From Paludibacteraceae bacterium (lineage in GTDB: Bacteria; Bacteroidota; Bacteroidia; Bacteroidales; Paludibacteraceae), in NCBI GenBank assembly GCA_031292565.1, contig JARLGW010000001.1, positions 434,001-498,000 of the forward strand: a DNA stretch of 64,000 bases. Direction: 5' to 3'. Of this stretch, positions 8,903-56,224 are shown one piece after another. Under the pieces are notes generated by a model. That model was not told the origin of the DNA. It saw only the letters and a program-made list of their open reading frames with translations, and ran no database searches. Each line of letters begins with the position of its first letter. The stretch's first letter is position 1. Position numbers and translations under genes: made by a program.

Positions 8903-9195
8903 TTCCTTTTAATGTATTATCTCAAATTTTAACTATTAACAAAATTAGTAAAAAAACGCCGATATAAATTCAAAGAAACACATTTCATGTTTCATGCCGA
9001 AGCGAATCTTTTGCGGAGTTTTTTTTGCAAGAAAAACACGAAAAACAAAGCCCAAAATACAACTCATCAAATCGAGCACTCTTATTCTTACATACATCTC
9101 TTATTTTCAAATACTTATTCACCTCATCCAAAATCAGCAAGGGTGATTCAATTCGCTTCTTTGTGCACCTTTTCCCCTATTTTCAATCATTTCTT

Positions 9196-9243
9196 GGGTA
9201 ATTTTCAGGGTAGTTTCTCGGGTAGTTTTCAAGGTAGTTTCTT
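9196..9243. repeat. Four tandem 12-nt units (GGGTAGTTTTCA-like)
   Basis: Units at 9196, 9208, 9220 and 9232 share GGGTAGTTT(T/C)(C/T)(A/C/T) with 1-4 differences, and a partial fifth unit (GGGTAAAAATTACCC) forms a small palindrome. Because 12 is a multiple of 3, any frame through it encodes a 4-residue repeat (GSFQ-like on plus). Confidence 0.75.
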
Positions 9244-9551: not shown

Positions 9552-10529
9552 CTATATACACCTTTCTATTATTTTTTCCGTAAGTATCTTAAATTCTTCA
9601 TAACTTTTTTGAACAGCATAAAGATGAGCTCCGATAGCACCATCTGCTGGCTTTAACAAAAAGATAGGCTTATGAGCTTCCATTGACATTGGAGCTAAAC
9701 TTCGATAATGTTTTAATAAAGAAATACAATTTTCATCTTGTTCTACTGTAATACTATTATTCAATTGCTCATTACCTAAAACACATTCAGAAAAAACAGC
9801 AGGTATTCTATTTGCCCATTTCAAATAGGATTTAACAGGCCTACTATCTTTTGCAGTGTATTGCATTATTATATAACCACAAGGCAAAGCCAATCCTTCT
9901 GGAATTTTAAATTTAATGTTATCTGGAGTTAATGATTTTCTTAAATTCCATTGTTCCTTCCATTTATTAAGTGTCATACCTAAATTTTTTATTCCCTGTA
10001 AAGAAAATAAATCGGATGCAACAGGCATAATAATATAATCTGAACTAATGGCAATCGTTCTATTGATGGCTCCCAAATTAGGGCCAACATCTATCAAAAC
10101 CATTTCAGCATTAAATCTACTCACAGCATCATCTATTATTGTATTAAAAATACTTATTAGACGGAATGCATAAACTTGAGAATCTAAACATTTCAACCAA
10201 GCCTCACTTAAACTATCTTCAAACGTTGATAATGCTAAATTTCCTAATAATAATCCAAGATTATCATTAATTTTCTCAATATGAATAGGATTATATGGGT
10301 CACCCGAAACTATAGGCGTAATAGAATCTAAAACAGTTATTGGTTCATTATTTTCATATACCTCTTCCAGTCGCTCAGGGGACAAAAACATTGAAGTGAG
10401 GTTGGATTGAGGATCTAAATCTACAGCAATAGTCTTAACTCCCATTTCAGACATCATCCATGCAATATGATACACCGTAGTTGTTTTTCCAACTCCACCT
10501 TTATTGTTGAAGAAAATAATTTTTTTCAT
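9552..10529 (-). CDS. ParA/MinD-like AAA ATPase of an accessory two-gene module
   Basis: This is a P-loop ATPase of the ParA/Soj family (325 aa). It has the deviant Walker A NNKGGVGKTT with its signature first Lys, the A' region AVDLDPQSNLTSMFL, and Walker B-like VLIDVGPNLGAINRTI. It carries a long C-terminal extension beyond a standard ParA core (after about residue 200) that I do not recognise. There is no parB nearby, and the partner gene encodes an AlbA_2/HATPase protein 1 nt upstream. Chromosome partition is therefore unlikely; a regulatory or defence role is inference. The sequence is visibly AT-richer than the adjacent aspS. Confidence 0.8.
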   Translation of the reverse strand: MKKIIFFNNKGGVGKTTTVYHIAWMMSEMGVKTIAVDLDPQSNLTSMFLSPERLEEVYENNEPITVLDSITPIVSGDPYNPIHIEKINDNLGLLLGNLALSTFEDSLSEAWLKCLDSQVYAFRLISIFNTIIDDAVSRFNAEMVLIDVGPNLGAINRTIAISSDYIIMPVASDLFSLQGIKNLGMTLNKWKEQWNLRKSLTPDNIKFKIPEGLALPCGYIIMQYTAKDSRPVKSYLKWANRIPAVFSECVLGNEQLNNSITVEQDENCISLLKHYRSLAPMSMEAHKPIFLLKPADGAIGAHLYAVQKSYEEFKILTEKIIERCI

Positions 10530-10530
10530 C

Positions 10531-11727
10531 TCACCACTCCTTATTAATTGGTATTGTAACCTTAAATTTAGAGACTAAATTTATATCAAATTCAGGTTCT
10601 CCATTGCCATTTTTTTGAAGTTCTTCAATAGCTCTTTTTATTCCATAATTAAATCTATTTACATAACCTAACCTTTTCATCGATTCAGCAATGGCTACAT
10701 TTCTATAATCACTTGCATTAGGAAAATTACTTGCATTCACATCTCCATACAAACCTCCCGGGTTAATTATTTCTATTCTGTTATTGAACTCATAAACATA
10801 AATAGGGGAATTTGACTCATAACTACGATGCATTACAGCATTCATCGTAAGTTCTCTTAAAGCCCAATAAGAATAATTCTTAATGTTCCGTTCCTGAAAT
10901 GAGCCAGATTGAATTGGGCGTTCCTTTATAATATTACTTTTTATAAAATCGTCTAAAGCAGTCAATTCTGTTATAAAAGCCCCGGAAAAAACTTTTTCAA
11001 ATTCTACATCCGAAGTCATTTCTTCACCTGAAAACTTGACATATTGAATATATGCGCCTGGCAAATAAAATAAAGGATTAGTCCCAAACATTAATATTCC
11101 TGCATTTGTAGGACAATTTTCCTTTAGATTGAAAAATCTCAACGAAGCCAATTGTTCTTCAACGGTTCTTCCATTTAGTTTTAATGTTTCAGCATCAAAT
11201 GCTAAAGGCAAATAACTAAATTTAAAATGATCTATACTTAAATCTTTTATAGTAGATTCCTTATTTGGCACTAAATCATAAGTTCTTGCAGAAGCCGATC
11301 GTTTTTCAATCAAAATTCGTTCTTCATCAACAGTCGCCCTTGATTGTCTTGGGCCGATACGAATCCAACAAATCCCATTATACCTAACAGGAGGATATAA
11401 TGAAGGTTTGACCTCTATTACAACGACATCTCCTTCGTCAAAACTGAAAACCTCACTTACAATAAGTGACGGTTGAGGTAAAATATTTCCATTTGTCTTT
11501 ACGGCACCAATAGCTTGTAAATCTCCATCAGTCCATTTTTTACCAGCTATTGAGCCATTATCATTTACCCCGAGAAGAATAAATCCAGATTCTCTATGAT
11601 TAGGATAATCATTAGCAAGAGCACATACCGCTGGGCCTAATTTATCTTCTCTAATAGAAATTGTTCTTTCAATTCTATCTGATTCCATATCAGACAATAA
11701 TTGTTTTACCTTTTCAATACTAACCAT
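10531..11727 (-). CDS. AlbA_2 (Schlafen-type) domain protein with C-terminal HATPase_c_4
   Basis: This protein (398 aa) has an N-terminal AlbA_2/Schlafen-AlbA nucleic-acid-binding domain: ESDRIERT with the ALANDYPNHRESGFILLGVNDNG block, roughly residues 10-140. The C-terminus resembles the GHKL-like ATPase module found with it: LRELTMNAVMHRSYE, then RIEIINPGGL and the tail RLGYVNRFNYGIKRAIEEL. Such proteins are commonly annotated as ATP-binding or putative DNA-binding transcriptional regulators. It starts the module and the ParA-like gene follows after one base, so the two are co-translated. A -7-like box (CAAATATA, 11754-11761; TATATTTG on minus) lies 27 nt upstream. The function is unknown. 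Confidence 0.82.
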   Translation of the reverse strand: MVSIEKVKQLLSDMESDRIERTISIREDKLGPAVCALANDYPNHRESGFILLGVNDNGSIAGKKWTDGDLQAIGAVKTNGNILPQPSLIVSEVFSFDEGDVVVIEVKPSLYPPVRYNGICWIRIGPRQSRATVDEERILIEKRSASARTYDLVPNKESTIKDLSIDHFKFSYLPLAFDAETLKLNGRTVEEQLASLRFFNLKENCPTNAGILMFGTNPLFYLPGAYIQYVKFSGEEMTSDVEFEKVFSGAFITELTALDDFIKSNIIKERPIQSGSFQERNIKNYSYWALRELTMNAVMHRSYESNSPIYVYEFNNRIEIINPGGLYGDVNASNFPNASDYRNVAIAESMKRLGYVNRFNYGIKRAIEELQKNGNGEPEFDINLVSKFKVTIPINKEW

Positions 11728-11774
11728 AATAATTATCGGGTTATTTTAAAGCTCAAATATACAATTTTTAAAAC

Positions 11775-11811
11775 AATAACTCTCTAAATCAATTTGACTT
11801 AGAGAGTTATT
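11775..11811 (-). terminator. Hairpin terminator downstream of aspS
   Basis: A 13-bp stem (AATAACTCTCTAA / TTAGAGAGTTATT) with an 11-nt loop, about 28 nt past the aspS stop. It is followed in the minus direction by a T-rich stretch (TGTTTTAAAAATTG). It should insulate the accessory pair from aspS. Confidence 0.6.
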
Positions 11812-45315: not shown

Positions 45316-46212
45316 TTATCTTAAAGATGTAATTTTGCGAACTTCGTCAAAACTTAACTCTCCTTTTTCCCATTTTTTTTCTAATAAAAGAACTTTGTCT
45401 ATATCATAAACATCACTACTAAAAACAACTTTTGCTCTTTCATGAAGTTTCTCGTTTAATTTTATTACGATGTTGTTTAGTCCATCAATTAATGCAAGAA
45501 TACAATAAACTTGTGTTTTTTTTAATCTAAAGTCATTAATCACATTATAATATTCAGTTGTATTGTTTTCAAGATGAATATTACCCCATTTTGAGACTAT
45601 TTTATTAAAATTTTTATCCCATTCTTTCATATGTTTAGTACTTTTATATACATCAAACTTCCCTGAATCTAAAAACTTTGAACCAATTTTAAATACAGAA
45701 TAAACAACGTTCTGATATCCCCGATATCCACCTAATTGCTTTGGAAAATTTATAATAATACATTTAGATTTAGGAATAACTACCTTTTTTTCATTCCCAT
45801 TATAATCAGGAGCTTTAAATAGAACTTTATTCCTCTTAATTAAACAAAAATCAGGATCCAATCTTACTAATTCAAAAGCTTTAAAAGTTTCATCTTCTGA
45901 AAAAGAAGAAACAAATTCAAAGACTACTCTTCCTTTATAAACTAAATCATTTCCCATGTGCAAAAGCAAACTTAATAAGCTATTTCTTCCGTAACCATTA
46001 TGATTTTGTTCTAAATAATTATTTAAAATCTCAGTAAAATTGTCCGAACAATTAGAAAATTTTATTAAGTCTTTGAAACCTTCTTTTATCGTTGGATCAA
46101 TGCAAAAATATAGATCTCTAAAATATATTGAGTATAACTCATTATCTTGATATTTATTCTGCTCTTTATAATCAAAAGATAATTTATCGTTGAAATCTGT
46201 TTCTGCATTCAT
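45316..46212 (-). CDS. Unrecognised soluble protein of an AT-rich accessory module
   Basis: This protein of 298 aa matches no family I recognise. It has no signal peptide or membrane segment. It is rich in Lys, Asn and Phe, with acidic N-terminus (MNAETDFNDKLSFDYKEQNK) and motifs LSLLLHMGNDLVYKGRVVFEF, VVIPKSKCIIINFPKQLGGY and a C-terminal helix pair (VLLLEKKWEKGELSFDEVRK). The ATG is at 46212; the gene follows the interrupted membrane-protein gene by 26 nt on the same strand, so they are probably co-transcribed. Base composition is strikingly AT-rich compared with the GH28 and SNF2 genes on either side, pointing to horizontal acquisition. Confidence 0.6.
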   Translation of the reverse strand: MNAETDFNDKLSFDYKEQNKYQDNELYSIYFRDLYFCIDPTIKEGFKDLIKFSNCSDNFTEILNNYLEQNHNGYGRNSLLSLLLHMGNDLVYKGRVVFEFVSSFSEDETFKAFELVRLDPDFCLIKRNKVLFKAPDYNGNEKKVVIPKSKCIIINFPKQLGGYRGYQNVVYSVFKIGSKFLDSGKFDVYKSTKHMKEWDKNFNKIVSKWGNIHLENNTTEYYNVINDFRLKKTQVYCILALIDGLNNIVIKLNEKLHERAKVVFSSDVYDIDKVLLLEKKWEKGELSFDEVRKITSLR

Positions 46213-46238
46213 TAAAATAGAATTTATAAGTGTATTTT

Positions 46239-46889
46239 TTATTCTTCATTTTTCTCCAATTCTTCTTTGAGATATAACCCATAATTAGTTTGTTCTATTT
46301 TTAAATTTTTTAGATCATTATCTTGTCTTAAAAAGAATTCAATAAAAATGTCCTCTAAATTTTGAGTGTTAAAAGAACTATGATCTACTGGCAATCTTTT
46401 TATAAATGCTCTAAAATAAGGGTCTTTTATGTCTGTTTCAAAATAATTTGCCAAATAAGAGGGTTCTCTCTGATGTATTTTCACAACAGAACTTTCTTTT
46501 ATACACTTTGTAAGCTTTAACATACGCTCATTCTTTTTTGTGTATGCAATTGTATTATAGCGAAAGTCTGTCCTCAATAAAGAATACAATGGATACCATG
46601 CACTCCAAAACTCTTTTTTTTTCTCGTTAAATAAAATTTCTTTTATAGTATCAATTATTTCGGGATGGTCAAAACCTCTTGAAATAAGAATTACAATTGA
46701 CGATATTTCAAATAAGTCAATTAAGATTGGAGACAAAGGAACTAACGTTGAAACGTTTTTTGAGTCAATCAGAAGCCTCAGTTTGTCTAAATACGACAAA
46801 TTATATACATAATATTGTTTTAGTTTATTTGTTATATCGTCAGCTAATTCAACCTGTAGTAATCTATCGACAACATCTTTTGTGAGTAT
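46239..46889 (-). pseudogene. C-terminal part of the 46890-48698 gene, beyond an in-frame stop
   Basis: This stretch continues in exactly the same reading frame as the 602-codon gene upstream, separated from it only by the TAA at 46890-46892. The first 30 codons read ILTKDVVDRLLQVELADDIT and on, with no stop. The first candidate start is a TTG at 46799 and the first ATG is about 70 codons further in, so an independent gene is unlikely. The sequence (LDKLRLLIDSKNVSTLVPLS, then helical Lys-rich segments ending LKEELEKNEE) looks like continuing helical protein. The whole would be about 819 residues. A nonsense mutation, a sequencing error or a recoded stop are all possible. Confidence 0.65.
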
Positions 46890-48698
46890 TTATACATTTC
46901 CAAAAACATCTGGTAAACTAACATCGTTTACTTTATATGCACTTAACCCAGCCACCCATAAATTATCGAGTATAATAACTTTGAATAAATTATTTTTTCT
47001 TGTTATCTCATTTATTTCTAAAAACTCGAATTTCTTTTCTTGCGCTAAACTCATTAAGTTTAAGTTATCATTTATTTTATCAACTGTTTTAGAAAAGCTA
47101 TTAATTTTTTGATTTATTTCTAATGATTGTAAACAAATTATTGTTGCTTCTAAATACAGTTTATTTTCAATTAAGTATTTAATAAATTTCTCTGTTGTCT
47201 CTATTGTGAAATTACTAATATCGATTATGTGTGATTTTAAAATCTGAGCCATTTTTTGTGCTAACTTATACTCTGTATAAAACAATGGTGTAATAAACTT
47301 TCCTTCTAAATATTTTTCATTAGATAAGGCTTCTTGATATGCATCTATCCAAACCCGCAACTCATATGGGAAAGGCATTCCTTTATTTATGCTTTTAAAT
47401 ATATTAATATTACTTGCTAATTTTTTTAGAGAATCTACCGTAATAATCTTTGAAATATTATAATTGAATCCGACGAAATATTGAATTACAAGATTTGTAT
47501 ATACTGAAGATAACTCAATTTTATAGATTTCAGATTCTTTTTGAGACTGTTCTATTTTTTGCCTAAGTGTAATATAAAGTTTTCCAAAAAAATATTCATA
47601 TAAAGATTTGCTACACTGAAAGGCTAGGACTTGCAGATATTCTTGTTGATTAGCTAAAAGATCTACTTTTTTATGATTCTCAAGCTCATTGTTTATAAGT
47701 TTAAATTGAATATCTATAATACTTTTTTCAAGAGCACAATGATCGTCTATGTTTTCTGAGATTATTGGCATACCAACAATTTCAAGGGCTCGGTAGTCCA
47801 TCTCAGTAGCCTTATCCCATCTTCTAAATATCCGTTGTTGTAAATGTTGACCTTGATTTGATGGTATTAGATGTTTGTTTTTATTAAATATTTGTGCAAA
47901 AACCTTCAAATTATCCGAATATCTAAAAATATCATTTTCAGGAGCTCCATGACTCAAACTGTCATCAATAATGATTTCAATTTTATTTAAATTTCGCTTT
48001 ACATTTAATAAAATTGACTTTGGTGAACTTTTTGTTTTACTATTAAATTTATGTGTTTTGAATAATTCTCTAATAGAAACATCTAATGCATCAATAATTA
48101 AATTACTTGCATCGAAATATCTTAACGAATAGCTACCAAAATAAATAAATGAAAGTATTGCAAAAACAGTTAGAATAGTAAAGATTGATGCACTTAGAAG
48201 AGTCGGTTGATAGCCTAATATAAGAACAAACTGAAAAAGAATCGCTGTTGACACTAAAAATGATAGATATTTTAAATAGCGTTTAATGATCTTCTGTTGT
48301 AAAAATAATTCTGATATAGTAGTATCTACATTACGATATTTAGAAGAAAGGACACTAATTATGACAGTATAAAACAGACCCAATAAAACACCTAACACAC
48401 CTGCAACAATAACTATCTCATCTTTGAAAAAATCAAGCACCTTAAAACCAATAGTGTTATTTATAAGATGTATTATTGCTGCAATAGAATTTAGTGTATT
48501 TGATTTCGATTCGCATAATAACAAAGTGATATGACGAGCACCAGAATCAATTAAAAGTAAAAAAATTATAAAGAAGAAAGAAGTTAAGAAACCCTTTAAA
48601 CTATTTTTAATAAGCATTTTATAAAAGGAAATATTATCTTTCTTTTTTTCGTTTAAATTATATAAATTCAATTTTATTAATTGTCGGTATCCCTTCAT
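46890..48698 (-). CDS. Unrecognised membrane protein, N-terminal 602 residues of an interrupted gene
   Basis: This protein has four predicted membrane segments in its first 190 residues (about 36-52, 93-116, 144-163 and 169-190). A long cytoplasmic-looking helical region of about 410 residues follows, rich in Lys, Ile, Asn and Glu. I recognise no domain. The stop is TAA at 46890-46892; the frame then stays open for another 217 codons (see 46239-46889), so the intact protein was probably about 819 residues. It is AT-rich like its downstream partner. No convincing TAnnTTTG box was found upstream. Membrane anchor plus large soluble domain, paired with a second soluble protein, is an architecture common in defence systems, but that is only an analogy. 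Confidence 0.6.
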   Translation of the reverse strand: MKGYRQLIKLNLYNLNEKKKDNISFYKMLIKNSLKGFLTSFFFIIFLLLIDSGARHITLLLCESKSNTLNSIAAIIHLINNTIGFKVLDFFKDEIVIVAGVLGVLLGLFYTVIISVLSSKYRNVDTTISELFLQQKIIKRYLKYLSFLVSTAILFQFVLILGYQPTLLSASIFTILTVFAILSFIYFGSYSLRYFDASNLIIDALDVSIRELFKTHKFNSKTKSSPKSILLNVKRNLNKIEIIIDDSLSHGAPENDIFRYSDNLKVFAQIFNKNKHLIPSNQGQHLQQRIFRRWDKATEMDYRALEIVGMPIISENIDDHCALEKSIIDIQFKLINNELENHKKVDLLANQQEYLQVLAFQCSKSLYEYFFGKLYITLRQKIEQSQKESEIYKIELSSVYTNLVIQYFVGFNYNISKIITVDSLKKLASNINIFKSINKGMPFPYELRVWIDAYQEALSNEKYLEGKFITPLFYTEYKLAQKMAQILKSHIIDISNFTIETTEKFIKYLIENKLYLEATIICLQSLEINQKINSFSKTVDKINDNLNLMSLAQEKKFEFLEINEITRKNNLFKVIILDNLWVAGLSAYKVNDVSLPDVFGNV

Positions 48699-52792: not shown

Positions 52793-53027
52793 AGGATAAA
52801 ACGTTTAAAAGTTAGAAATAATTTCACCCAGTTCGGGGTTACTTTATTTTGAAAAATAGGCTTTCTATAATAATATCATCCTTTCAGGATTAAAATATCT
52901 CAAATTAAAACAAAACAAGATACACACAAATATACAAAAAACACCTTACTCCTTTGCTAATATCTTATTGTTTAAAAGTTTTCAAAAACAAGAAGACCTT
53001 TAGAACGGTTTATTTAATATAAATAGT

Positions 53028-53035
53028 TATTTTTG
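53028..53035 (+). promoter_or_regulatory. Possible -7 box of the 53070 gene
   Basis: TATTTTTG at 53028-53035 matches TAnnTTTG, 34 nt before the start codon; no clear -33 partner. Confidence 0.4.
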
Positions 53036-53069
53036 AAATGAAAAATTTTAAAAATAACTAAATTAACTT

Positions 53070-53786
53070 ATGGCTTTTCCTGATAAATTAAAATGCGAAG
53101 TGGAAAATTATATAAATAAACATCATCCTAATCAAGCATGGTGGGAACAATATTTTGACATAGCTTTTGTAAGTGATGTTGAATTAGCAAAAAGATTAGT
53201 CCAAGAGATGATGTCAATTAGAACAGTATATCAACTGCTAGAAGGATTAAGGGCTCAAAATGAATTATTGAGAGCTCAATCAAAAATCCAAATAATAACG
53301 TATGCATCTGTTTATGAAGCCATTTTACACCATATCATTTTTAAAACAGATCTAAAACTTAATCAAGAAGTAATAAATCTATTGTCCAAAGAAAAATATG
53401 TCAAGAGATCGTTGCCAATGCCGCATCAAAATATCACTCATAATGGGGAAATAATCTATACAATGGCAAAAGTTCCTATTACAAGAGAAGAACGATATAT
53501 TAAATTTGAAGAGATTTTACACGTTACGCAAAAACTTAATCTAATTGATAGTTCATTATATGAAGACTTACTTGAATTATATAATTTACGAAATGCAATA
53601 CATATTCATGCTGAAATTGCTAAAGGCATTAATTATCAACTAGAAATATCAAAAAAAGCACATAAACTTATTAAACCTTTTAAAAATCAAATTATTGATG
53701 GATTAAAGGCTCATAAATTAGTTGATAGAAAATACAATGTAAAATTCTCCAGAAAAGAACTTATTCCTAAATTTGATATTCAATAG
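53070..53786 (+). CDS. Unrecognised protein with a HEPN-like RN(x)4H motif
   Basis: This soluble, all-helical-looking protein of 238 aa belongs to no family I can name. Near the C-terminus it carries LYNLRNAIHIHAE: Arg174-Asn175 followed by His178 and His180. This fits the R-N-x(3-5)-H signature of HEPN RNases within a helix preceded by a conserved-looking DLLELYNLR. The middle part (YASVYEAILHHIIFKTDLKL) could be the partner helix. It lies in an AT-rich patch 135 nt upstream of a second gene with the same kind of motif. A HEPN nuclease or HEPN-fold structural role is inference. Confidence 0.6.
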   Translation: MAFPDKLKCEVENYINKHHPNQAWWEQYFDIAFVSDVELAKRLVQEMMSIRTVYQLLEGLRAQNELLRAQSKIQIITYASVYEAILHHIIFKTDLKLNQEVINLLSKEKYVKRSLPMPHQNITHNGEIIYTMAKVPITREERYIKFEEILHVTQKLNLIDSSLYEDLLELYNLRNAIHIHAEIAKGINYQLEISKKAHKLIKPFKNQIIDGLKAHKLVDRKYNVKFSRKELIPKFDIQ

Positions 53787-53921
53787 GCAAATACGTCCTT
53801 AATACATTACAAGATAAAACACCTGATTATTTAACAAATACAAACACACGATAATAATACGGGTTTCAACTCAATAAACTAATAATACAAGTTCTGAAAA
53901 TTTAAAGTTTAACTAAAAAAT

Positions 53922-54614
53922 ATGGACTCACATATAAATGCGATACTAGACAAAATGACAGGATTAAAATATTCTGAATTAACATTTGAAATGGCGCACA
54001 AACTTACTAATGAATCGGAAAGGGGTGCTCTATTAATTGGAGTCGGTAAAATAGAAGAATATTTAGAAAAATTAATCAACAAAATACTGCCTGCAAAACA
54101 AAAAAATTATACTCTAAGATTGTTAAATTATCCAGGTCCTCTAAGTTCTTTTTCTGGAAAAATTGAACTTCTTTATGCATTCCGTATCATTGATAAAAGA
54201 TTATACGACTCAATAACTATTTTAAGAAAACTAAGGAATAAAGCAGCTCACTCTTCTGAAATATTTTCTCTTCAAGACACAAATGAAAGTTTAGATAAAA
54301 TTTATGATTTTGAATACGGCTTCAAAGAAGTAGTGCATAAACTTGCATATGATCATCTAATAAAATGGAAAATTGAAACTATAAAAGATGGATTTAAGGG
54401 AAAAAACATGGACAAGATTGATGTAAATGAATTATGGACAAAATATTATGATGATCTAGAACATAAAAAAATAATTCAGGAACAATTAACGATATGGAAA
54501 CTTGCTTATGGATTAACATTTCTTTGTCTTAAAATTGAAGTTTTGATAGATGAATTTGATTTTTTAGATGAATCTAATGAAATTTGGATTCATTATATTA
54601 AAAGCAATAAATAA
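53922..54614 (+). CDS. MltR-like / HEPN-fold protein
   Basis: This soluble protein of 230 aa has an N-terminal half resembling the MltR (mannitol operon repressor) family: ERGALLIGVGKIEEYLEKLI, GPLSSFSGKIELLYAFRIID and LRKLRNKAAHS. The last segment holds Arg105-Asn106 and His110, an Rx4H HEPN-type motif. The C-terminal 100 residues are Lys/Asp-rich and helical without clear match. MltR-type proteins are used both as regulators and as members of mobile accessory loci. No mannitol genes lie nearby, so a mannitol role has no support. It is AT-rich like its upstream neighbour. Confidence 0.7.
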   Translation: MDSHINAILDKMTGLKYSELTFEMAHKLTNESERGALLIGVGKIEEYLEKLINKILPAKQKNYTLRLLNYPGPLSSFSGKIELLYAFRIIDKRLYDSITILRKLRNKAAHSSEIFSLQDTNESLDKIYDFEYGFKEVVHKLAYDHLIKWKIETIKDGFKGKNMDKIDVNELWTKYYDDLEHKKIIQEQLTIWKLAYGLTFLCLKIEVLIDEFDFLDESNEIWIHYIKSNK

Positions 54615-54728
54615 AAAAATTATGAAGAATCCATTCATGAAGGTAAATGGATTTACACAACCGTGAACGGTTCTACAAACTTAAAAGATATATTGACACT
54701 GCTAAACATCCGCCTAACGATAAAATAA
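54615..54728 (+). pseudogene. Possible 3' remnant of a DUF3788-like gene
   Basis: Directly after the MltR-like stop, the same frame stays open for 37 codons (EGKWIYTTVNGSTNLKDILT, then LLNIRLTIK and TAA at 54726-54728). The W-I-Y...LKDIL.LL.I pattern resembles the C-terminal end of DUF3788-type proteins. No start codon or upstream portion is present, so it would be a fragment left at the insertion boundary. The assignment is weak. Confidence 0.3.
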
Positions 54729-54742
54729 TTTTCGTTAGAAAA

Positions 54743-54776
54743 AAGTTACGCCGCCTCAATATCACATTGAAGCGGC
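54743..54776 (-). terminator. Terminator of the xylose operon
   Basis: GCCGC-C-TCAAT / ATTGA-A-GCGGC (54750-54776, loop ATCAC) is followed on the minus strand by AACTTTTTT. It lies about 50 nt past the xylE stop. A second, smaller hairpin (CTAACGA/TCGTTAG, 54714-54738) follows. Confidence 0.7.
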
Positions 54777-54826
54777 GCGAAAAAAAAGGGAGAAAATAAT
54801 GAGGTAACCTTAACAAAACCCCACAT

Positions 54827-56224
54827 TTATTTTTTCCACAAATGTTGCATTTCCTCCAACGTTTTACCTTTGGTTTCGGGCACCATTTTCCAAACAAACA
54901 ATATAGATAAAACCGACATCACGCCGTATAAAAAATACGTGAACGAAATACTAAAAGCCGACAGACTGGGGAACGTGGCGGACACTACAAAATTGGTAAT
55001 CCACTGTACCGCTACCGCAATAGCTACCGCTTTTCCACGAATGGTATTCGGGAAAATTTCGGAAATAAGTACCCAACAGATGGGTCCCCACGACATCATA
55101 AACGCGGCGGAATAAATAACGATAAACAGCAACGTGCTTACTCCTATAATTTGCAAATGCGCCAGTAACCCGATGGCAAACATACCGATAGCCATGCCCA
55201 CGGAACCGATAATAAGCAAAGGCTTACGCCCGAACTTATCCACGGTGAAAATAGCCACGAGGGTAAACACGATGTTTACAAAACCCATAATCACCGTTTG
55301 CCACATAGCGGCATCGTTGCCAAAGCCCAAGCTTTTGAAAATGGTAGGAGCATAATACAGCACCACGTTGATACCCACCACCTGCTGAAACACAGAAAGC
55401 AAGATACCCACTATCAGCACTTTCCAGCCGTAGGACGAAACCCGTTCCACTTTTTCGTGAATGGTTTCTTTTATTTCGGCCAAAATTTCACGGGCTTTTT
55501 CTTTCCCGTTTATTTTACCCAAAACACGAAGAGCCTTTTCCTCATCGCCTGCCAACGTAAGATAGCGGGGCGTTTCGGGCACAAAGGATAGCAACAGGCC
55601 GAACAGTGCAGCCGGAATGGCATTCGATGCAAACATCCAACGCCAGCCTTCGGCATCAATCCACGCCTGGGGTTCGCCTTTGGTAATAAAGAAGTTGACA
55701 AAATATACCACCAACATACCGAAAATAATAGCAAACTGATTCCATGAAACCAACTTACCGCGAATTTCGGCAGGGGCAATTTCGGCTATATACATGGGGC
55801 AGATGGCGGATGCCAGCCCTACCCCCATGCCTCCGAGAATACGATACAGATTGAACGCGATGAGCACCGGCACCGAGCCGTCGCCCTTGGTAAAGAAAAG
55901 AAATTCGGGATGAGCAGCCCCAAGTGCCGACACGAAAAACAAAATAGCTGCCAGCAACAAGGATTTTTTACGCCCCAAACCGGTGGCAAACCAACCCGAA
56001 AATGCACTACCGATAATGCACCCGATAAGTGCGCTAGACACCGTGGCTCCATGATAGAACGTGGCGGCATCGCCAAACGTGGCGGCATCCAAATGGAAAA
56101 ACATCTTGAGCGAATCGACCGCACCGGAAATAACAGCCGTGTCGTATCCGAACAGCAATCCACCCAAGGTAGCCACCAGCGTAATACTGAAAATGTAGAG
56201 ATTTTCCTGTTTGTGTGAATTCAT
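54827..56224 (-). CDS. xylE: D-xylose/proton symporter (MFS sugar porter)
   Basis: This 12-helix sugar transporter of 465 aa brings xylose into the cell with protons. Sugar-porter signatures are present: GGLLFGYDTAVISGA in helix 1, GLGRKKSLL and DKFGRKPLL (R-x-G-R-K loops), GMGVGLASAICPMYIAEIAP, QQVVGINVVLYYAP and the C-terminal PETKGKTLEEMQ. It is the last gene of the regulator-xylB-xylA-xylE operon. The 120-nt gap from xylA contains a heptanucleotide repeat that could alter its leader. Assignment to xylose rests on the operon. Confidence 0.92.
   Translation of the reverse strand: MNSHKQENLYIFSITLVATLGGLLFGYDTAVISGAVDSLKMFFHLDAATFGDAATFYHGATVSSALIGCIIGSAFSGWFATGLGRKKSLLLAAILFFVSALGAAHPEFLFFTKGDGSVPVLIAFNLYRILGGMGVGLASAICPMYIAEIAPAEIRGKLVSWNQFAIIFGMLVVYFVNFFITKGEPQAWIDAEGWRWMFASNAIPAALFGLLLSFVPETPRYLTLAGDEEKALRVLGKINGKEKAREILAEIKETIHEKVERVSSYGWKVLIVGILLSVFQQVVGINVVLYYAPTIFKSLGFGNDAAMWQTVIMGFVNIVFTLVAIFTVDKFGRKPLLIIGSVGMAIGMFAIGLLAHLQIIGVSTLLFIVIYSAAFMMSWGPICWVLISEIFPNTIRGKAVAIAVAVQWITNFVVSATFPSLSAFSISFTYFLYGVMSVLSILFVWKMVPETKGKTLEEMQHLWKK

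What the first reader, a model, noticed from the sequence alone, without database searches (positions are those of the whole stretch)
9552..11727. ParA-like ATPase coupled to an AlbA_2/HATPase protein
The two genes are 1 nt apart, lie beside aspS, are AT-richer than their surroundings, and have no ParB or plasmid genes nearby. An AlbA_2/Schlafen-type nucleic-acid binder with a GHKL-like ATPase plus a ParA-type switch ATPase with a long unknown C-terminus would make a two-ATPase regulatory or defence unit. I know of no characterised role for this exact pair.
Basis: partly seen in the sequence, partly recalled or inferred. Interest (0 to 1): 0.62.

Follow-up and report, generated by a model that had tools for sequence, protein, structure and literature searches.

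The report
Schlafen–ParA gene pair, probable defence module
A bacterial Schlafen-type protein (relative of animal antiviral RNA-cutting enzymes) and a ParA-like ATPase always travel as overlapping neighbour genes and sit inside restriction systems in some relatives, so they probably form a two-part anti-phage or toxin–antitoxin module that nobody has tested.

Summary
Two genes at 9552–11727 (minus strand, 1 nt apart) encode an AlbA_2/Schlafen–HATPase protein (398 aa) and a ParA-like ATPase (325 aa). The pairing is fixed: in 40 of 40 intact loci from many Bacteroidota families the Schlafen gene comes first, on the same strand, with −16 to +2 nt between the genes; the two proteins' distances correlate (r=0.94). 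In relatives the pair is wedged between mod and res of type III restriction–modification systems (5 loci, 2 of them decayed) or next to HmaA/HmaB of Hma systems. Elsewhere, as in this window, it stands alone beside housekeeping genes. The AlbA_2 model matches SLFN13 and the SAMD9 tRNase domain; E15, E20 and D56, spaced much like SLFN13's catalytic triad, are invariant in all 40. Paired proteins lack the C-terminal extension of unpaired relatives. The ParA belongs to a non-partition branch whose distant members overlap SIR2, HEPN or RelA/SpoT genes. Best reading: a Schlafen RNase effector controlled by its ParA-like partner, for phage defence or as a toxin–antitoxin pair. No function is shown. 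ParA–HEPN dyads and bacterial Schlafen defence were proposed before; this combination was not found in the literature searched.

The parts
10531..11727 (-). Schlafen (AlbA_2)–HATPase_c_4 protein, 398 aa; first gene of the pair; lacks the C-terminal extension (winged-helix-like in those inspected) of unpaired relatives; putative RNase effector
   Evidence: Pfam; model matches 3lmm Z 19.7, SLFN13 Z 9.1, SAMD9 tRNase domain Z 9.2; E15/E20/D56 invariant in 40
9552..10529 (-). ParA-like deviant-Walker ATPase, 325 aa, of the DIP2308/3pg5 family; putative regulatory partner
   Evidence: Pfam; 3pg5 sequence match over residues 1–304 and Z 24.2 over 276 residues; tree
9639..9704 (-). codons 276–297 of the ParA-like gene: conserved C-terminal block RSLAPMSMEAHKPIFLLKPADG, mostly below pLDDT 50 in the model; candidate contact with the partner (inference)
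   Evidence: alignment, wider family, model
11728..11774 (-). short gap between the aspS-side hairpin and the Schlafen start codon that should hold the pair's own promoter and ribosome-binding site (inferred, not shown)
   Evidence: position between hairpin I3 and gene start
11775..11811 (.). near-perfect hairpin (18-nt arms, 94% complementary, 1-nt loop) between aspS and the pair; probable terminator separating the transcription units
   Evidence: inverted repeat I3

Best explanation
The two genes form one functional module. The first gene makes a Schlafen-type RNase effector (AlbA_2 domain) fused to a GHKL-type ATP-binding domain; the second makes a ParA-like ATPase that is its dedicated regulatory partner. 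Most likely the ParA-like protein holds the Schlafen protein inactive, or licenses it only in a given nucleotide- or DNA-bound state. A phage-induced change then releases the RNase, which cuts tRNA or other RNA and stops translation (abortive infection or toxin–antitoxin-like behaviour). In relatives the module is carried as an accessory inside DNA-modification defence systems (type III R-M, Hma), and it also persists alone, as here. Shown by sequence: the pairing, its geometry, co-divergence, conserved catalytic-type residues, R-M/Hma embedding in relatives. Inferred: RNase activity, direction of regulation, trigger, defence function.
For: Fixed overlapping order in 40/40 intact loci, gaps −16 to +2 nt. 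Co-divergence r=0.94 for 40 pairs and 0.82 within the close family, no permutation as high in 2000. AlbA_2 model residues 1–118 align with SLFN13 187–324 (Z 9.1, 2.4 Å, 103 residues) and with the SAMD9 tRNase domain (Z 9.2). E15, E20 and D56, spaced 5 and 36, parallel catalytic E205, E210, D248 of rat SLFN13 (PMC5862951) and are invariant in 40 proteins. Placement between mod and res of type III R-M: L064 (both intact), L057, L063, and decayed L050, L058. Placement after HmaA (2010 bits, L110) and before HmaB (1027 bits, L105), plus HmaA remnants in five more loci. Distant ParA relatives overlap SIR2, HEPN or RelA/SpoT genes, which are recognised conflict effectors. Precedents: ParA/Soj–HEPN dyads predicted as toxin–antitoxin (PMC3710099); Schlafen–histidine-kinase-fold–wHTH proteins as backup effectors in over 1000 taxa with BREX-type loci (PMC12839542). 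dN/dS 0.05–0.24 for both genes in one genus, including loci whose HmaA has decayed.
Against: No experiment; neither RNase activity nor toxicity is shown. The window copy and many others lie among housekeeping genes. Effector-first gene order is the reverse of the ParA-first order of the SIR2, HEPN and RelA/SpoT dyads. In one genus several loci have lost the Walker-A lysine (L107, L111, L080, L086), so ATPase activity is not needed everywhere or those copies are decaying. AlbA_2 proteins are also annotated as DNA-binding or transcriptional regulators. Schlafen model confidence is moderate (mean pLDDT 73.5, pTM 0.54).
Confidence: 0.5

Rival explanations
1. The pair is a DNA- or nucleotide-responsive transcriptional regulator: the AlbA_2 protein binds DNA and the ATPases switch it, with no nuclease activity.
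For: AlbA_2–HATPase proteins with wHTH are traditionally annotated as transcriptional regulators (own knowledge); the pAgo survey counts AlbA_2 as a DNA-binding domain (PMC6299218).
Against: Paired proteins are 391–412 aa and lack the C-terminal extension of most unpaired relatives (440–576 aa; winged-helix-like where read by eye). Catalytic-type acidic residues are invariant. Neighbours outside defence systems are not conserved, so there is no fixed target gene.
Confidence: 0.15
2. The pair is an accessory of type III R-M/Hma systems that guards or tunes them (for example, triggered when phage inhibits restriction), and lone copies are remnants.
For: Precise insertion between mod and res or next to HmaA; R-M-linked copies in three subclades of the Schlafen tree; stubs of mod/res or HmaA next to intact pairs.
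Against: Many copies are solitary and intact; the window genome has no detected mod/res relative (an empty answer without positive control is weak). In decayed loci it is the R-M/Hma genes that are broken while the pair is kept under purifying selection, so the pair does not seem to need them.
Confidence: 0.2
3. A housekeeping or stress-response enzyme pair without role in conflict (for example RNA processing under ATP control).
For: High conservation (61–77% identity across families) and solitary copies.
Against: Patchy distribution: about 5% of sampled genomes, ParA absent from three congeners and pair absent from their aspS junctions; defence-system embedding in relatives.
Confidence: 0.11
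4. The pair is a ParA-type partition or positioning system with the AlbA_2 protein as the ParB/adaptor analogue.
For: ParA fold with P-loop.
Against: Chromosomal loci among housekeeping genes, no parS-like repeat array near the pair; the family is separated from chromosomal Soj by a long, fully supported branch and has its own motifs FNNKGGVGKT and DxGPxLGxxNR; distant members partner with SIR2, HEPN and RelA/SpoT enzymes.
Confidence: 0.04

Closest known systems
Bacterial Schlafen proteins (AlbA_2–HATPase–wHTH) as auxiliary effectors of BREX/BREX-related systems (PMC12839542; cites bioRxiv 10.1101/2025.07.24.666596, not readable here)
   Same: AlbA_2 domain with catalytic-type acidic residues, HATPase domain, helicase/methylase defence genes (HmaA/HmaB) as neighbours in some loci
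   Different: no fused C-terminal wHTH; obligate overlapping ParA-like partner; also found between type III mod and res, and alone. The paper has no whole-word mention of ParA
ParA/Soj–HEPN (MAE_18760) dyads predicted as toxin–antitoxin (PMC3710099)
   Same: two overlapping genes, ParA/Soj-like ATPase plus putative RNase; distant ParA relatives found here do overlap HEPN genes (L163, L099)
   Different: effector is Schlafen–HATPase, gene order reversed, distinct well-supported ParA clade
C. diphtheriae DIP2308 (3pg5) and DIP2311 (3lmm) structures
   Same: top structural matches of the ParA (Z 24.2) and of the Schlafen protein (Z 19.7) come from one organism, three locus tags apart
   Different: 3lmm is longer (583 aa); that locus could not be read here, so pairing there is only suggested
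SLFN13 / SAMD9 tRNase domains
   Same: fold and spacing of the acidic triad
   Different: one AlbA_2 lobe here instead of the pseudo-dimeric SLFN N-domain; no activity shown
Type III R-M and Hma defence systems
   Same: host loci for the pair in relatives
   Different: neither system's defining genes are in the window

Membership tests
Bacterial Schlafen (SLFN_AlbA_2) proteins | SLFN_AlbA_2 domain above Pfam cut-off | tested here: met
   49.0 bits vs cut-off 25.3
Bacterial Schlafen (SLFN_AlbA_2) proteins | fold of the Schlafen RNase core | tested here: met
   SLFN13 Z 9.1 over 103 residues at 2.4 Å, SAMD9 tRNase domain Z 9.2; model of moderate confidence
Bacterial Schlafen (SLFN_AlbA_2) proteins | acidic catalytic triad | tested here: inconclusive
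   E15, E20, D56 invariant in 40, spacing 5/36 against 5/38 in SLFN13; no residue-level structural alignment was available
Bacterial Schlafen (SLFN_AlbA_2) proteins | RNase activity | not testable with these tools
   needs purified protein
Schlafen–histidine-kinase-fold–wHTH effectors of BREX-type loci | C-terminal wHTH | tested here: not met
   398 aa ending with the HATPase domain (residues 307–392); all 40 paired proteins are 391–412 aa, nearest unpaired relatives 478–496 aa apart from a contig-truncated one
ParA partition ATPases | deviant Walker A and ParA fold | tested here: met
   KGGVGKT; AAA_31 102 bits; ParA/Soj structures Z about 22
ParA partition ATPases | adjacent ParB/adaptor and centromere | tested here: not met
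   no ParB gene recognised nearby; no parS-like repeat array
ParA partition ATPases | equivalog scores of ParA/RepA partition models | tested here: not met
   52.3 bits vs cut-off 348 for RepA; 48.5 vs 180 for ParA_partition
DIP2308/3pg5-type ParA family | full-length similarity including the C-terminal third | tested here: met
   phmmer E 5e-29 over residues 1–304; C-terminal block shared with SIR2-linked relatives
ParA–HEPN toxin–antitoxin dyads | HEPN partner | tested here: not met
   partner is Schlafen–HATPase; no HEPN domain found
Known PADLOC defence systems | a complete known system at the locus | tested here: not met
   only partial hits: pAgo-fused AlbA_2/HATPase region and P-loop
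Type III R-M / Hma | mod and res next to the pair in the window | tested here: not met
   no mod or res remnant near the pair; own genome gave no mod or res match, without a positive control in that search; Hma genes were not searched for genome-wide
Toxin–antitoxin systems | toxicity of one gene neutralised by the other | not testable with these tools
   needs expression tests

The most novel reading that the evidence does not exclude
ParA-like ATPases of the DIP2308/3pg5 family are a general control subunit for interchangeable effectors (Schlafen RNase, SIR2 NADase, HEPN RNase, RelA/SpoT synthetase). Because ParA-ATP dimers bind bulk DNA, the ATPase could read the state of the nucleoid: when a phage degrades or takes over host DNA, the ParA-like protein is released and unleashes its effector. 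Schlafen–ParA would be one branch of this class.
Probability: 0.13. Interest if true: 0.88.

Novelty: new variant of a known kind. Interest (0 to 1): 0.58.

Why it matters
It gives a common annotation problem ('ParA family protein' next to 'putative transcriptional regulator') a testable meaning, links a bacterial relative of animal antiviral Schlafens to a new partner, and adds an accessory module that repeatedly settles inside restriction systems and can outlive them. If the ParA-like protein controls four unrelated effector types, a DNA-binding ATPase used as an immune sensor would be a new principle that can be tested with a few two-gene constructs.

Tried and rejected
Plasmid partition: rejected (no ParB, housekeeping context, separate clade, partition models far below cut-off). 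Insertion element with defined ends: no tRNA gene in the window, no shared sequence seen by eye at the pair's boundaries in 16 loci, no recombinase recognised among the nearby genes; rejected for lack of support. aspS as a preferred site: the pair also follows aspS in L059 (Cyclobacteriaceae MAG), but the aspS junctions of three congeners and nine other relatives hold other genes; left open, probably coincidence. Empty-site comparison: impossible, the downstream gene is not syntenic in the relatives. Type III mod/res in the own genome: no match, no positive control. DIP2308–DIP2311 neighbourhood: papers searched held nothing useful. Literature on a Schlafen–ParA pair: Schlafen+ParA+restriction-modification returned only the 2013 HEPN paper. 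The 2025 Schlafen defence preprint is not held. The PADLOC pAgo hit as an Argonaute system: rejected, it is the AlbA_2/HATPase region shared with fused pAgos.

Full report
On the minus strand, 11727–10531 encodes a 398-residue protein with SLFN_AlbA_2 and HATPase_c_4 domains, and 10529–9552 a 325-residue ParA-like ATPase with an intact KGGVGKT motif; one base lies between them. The pair has 32.2% GC against 40.0% for the window and 48.4% for aspS. A hairpin at 11775–11811 between aspS and the pair looks like the aspS terminator, so the pair should have its own promoter in the ~45 nt that follow (inferred).

The pairing is fixed. A scan of one genome per species with the ParA protein returned 17 loci at 61–77% identity, and every one has the Schlafen homologue directly upstream (in L054 it is cut by the contig end). 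Profile searches of 395 genomes of the phylum and 298 genomes of one order gave 19 genomes with ParA matches over 300 bits in the first (ten of them from a single genus) and 14 at E below 1e-60 in the second. Of 46 loci kept, 40 have both genes intact, always same strand, Schlafen first, with −16 to +2 nt between them, most often a 4-nt overlap. The other six are cut by contig ends, broken or truncated; only one (L153) shows no trace of the Schlafen gene. Protein distances of the two partners correlate at r=0.94 (0.82 within the close family; none of 2000 permutations as high). None of 27 Schlafen relatives outside the paired group has this ParA nearby (flanks of about 1.5 kb); paired proteins form one side of the tree, though that branch is weakly supported (55/82).

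Genomic context in relatives. In L064 the order is mod–Schlafen–ParA–res of a type III restriction–modification system, with Pfam and PADLOC support for mod and res types. L057 has the pair followed by res (the mod side lies beyond the contig). L063 has mod and a res gene with an early stop. In L050 and L058 mod is reduced to joined N- and C-terminal pieces and res to its first 50–90 residues, with the pair intact between them; L055 keeps ten residues that resemble the Mod C-terminus (weak). In one unnamed genus the pair follows HmaA (2010 bits in L110) and precedes HmaB (1027 bits in L105), and five further loci (L080, L107, L108, L109, L111) carry pieces of HmaA beside the pair. In L105 an 80-residue protein matching the Fic-like C-terminal domain family, similar to the end of some unpaired Schlafens (read by eye), lies between ParA and HmaB. 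L112 and L113 lie beside helicase/methylase, Fic or type I-restriction-like genes. Most remaining loci, including the window, are flanked by unrelated housekeeping genes. Since loci were found with ParA alone, the restriction context was not selected for.

Where HmaA has decayed, both genes of the pair still show dN/dS of 0.05–0.24. That suggests that the pair is useful without its former host system. A caution: four ParA copies in that genus have lost the Walker-A lysine (L107, L111, L080, L086), all at loci without an intact HmaA on the stretch read, so some copies may be decaying.

What the Schlafen protein may do. Its model, of moderate confidence, matches 3lmm (DIP2311, Z 19.7), SLFN13 (Z 9.1, 103 residues, 2.4 Å, model 1–118 on 187–324) and the SAMD9 tRNase domain (Z 9.2). 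SLFN13 uses E205, E210 and D248 (PMC5862951); the window protein has E15, E20 and D56, invariant in all 40 pairs. N296, H300 and several glycines of the HATPase domain are also invariant. The unpaired closest relatives carry about 85 extra C-terminal residues that look like a winged helix; paired ones do not, so the ParA-like protein may replace that part (inference).

What the ParA-like protein is. It matches DIP2308 (3pg5) over nearly its whole length in sequence and structure (Z 24.2). Partition models score far below their cut-offs. On a tree with distant relatives the Schlafen-linked ParAs form a well-supported clade (100/99), as do SIR2-linked ones (98/99), and the whole family is separate from chromosomal Soj (100/99). 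Distant members overlap SIR2 genes in Vibrio, Spirosoma, Salmonella, Photobacterium, Neorhizobium and Burkholderia plasmids and have one next to them in L120; HEPN genes in Burkholderia glumae and L099, and RelA/SpoT genes in Caballeronia and L119. Others are solo in phages, including Pf1 Orf317 and the P22-like SE1 gene close to the CI repressor. The shared motifs FN[NH]KGGV[GS]KT and DxxPxxxxxN mark most of the family.

Mechanism proposed: a Schlafen RNase effector under control of the ParA-like ATPase, acting in phage defence or as a toxin–antitoxin pair. The direction of control and the trigger are inferences. The 2013 HEPN survey proposed ParA/Soj as the antitoxin of HEPN RNases (PMC3710099), and a 2026 survey lists Schlafen–histidine-kinase-fold–wHTH proteins as backup effectors of BREX-type loci (PMC12839542). 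Neither describes this pair, as far as the passages read show. I therefore rate it a new variant of a known kind, with a possible larger class behind it.

Noticed in passing
L068:6001-7853, L069:6001-7889, L070:6001-7919, L161:3501-5364, L162:3429-5358, L073:5977-7846, L120:8016-9876: ParA-like ATPase overlapping or adjoining a SIR2-type protein in plasmids and chromosomes of several phyla; a candidate NADase dyad, not matched as a system in PADLOC (only the SIR2 proteins hit ThsA/Dsr-type models).
   Followed up: partly
L165:3579-5269 and L119:7974-9718: ParA-like ATPase overlapping a RelA/SpoT-domain protein (candidate toxic small alarmone synthetase dyad); the L165 ParA reading frame seems broken near its P-loop.
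   Followed up: partly
L163:3495-5134 and L099:1471-3103: ParA-like ATPase overlapping a RiboL-PSP-HEPN gene, matching the dyad predicted in 2013.
   Followed up: partly
L065:4073-5026 and L066:3995-5068: Solo members of the family in phage Pf1 (Orf317) and P22-like phage SE1, the latter near the CI repressor where lysogenic-conversion genes often sit.
   Followed up: no
L050:4750-5157, L058:5666-6030, L109:11144-11569, L111:3471-3911, L159:5321-5722: Genes next to the pair (mod, HmaA) and one Schlafen gene are shortened by internal deletions rather than by end truncation.
   Followed up: no
L059:4874-8990: Pair directly downstream of aspS in the same orientation as in the window, in a different family; coincidence or a preferred site.
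   Followed up: partly
window 9190-9237: Three imperfect copies of a 24-nt stretch at 12-nt spacing (TTTCTTGGGTAATTTTCAGGGTAG) between the ParA gene and the DJ-1-type gene.
   Followed up: no
window 45316-48698 and 53000-55000: Two blocks of 26–30% GC, more AT-rich than the pair, with ORFs not identified here.
   Followed up: no
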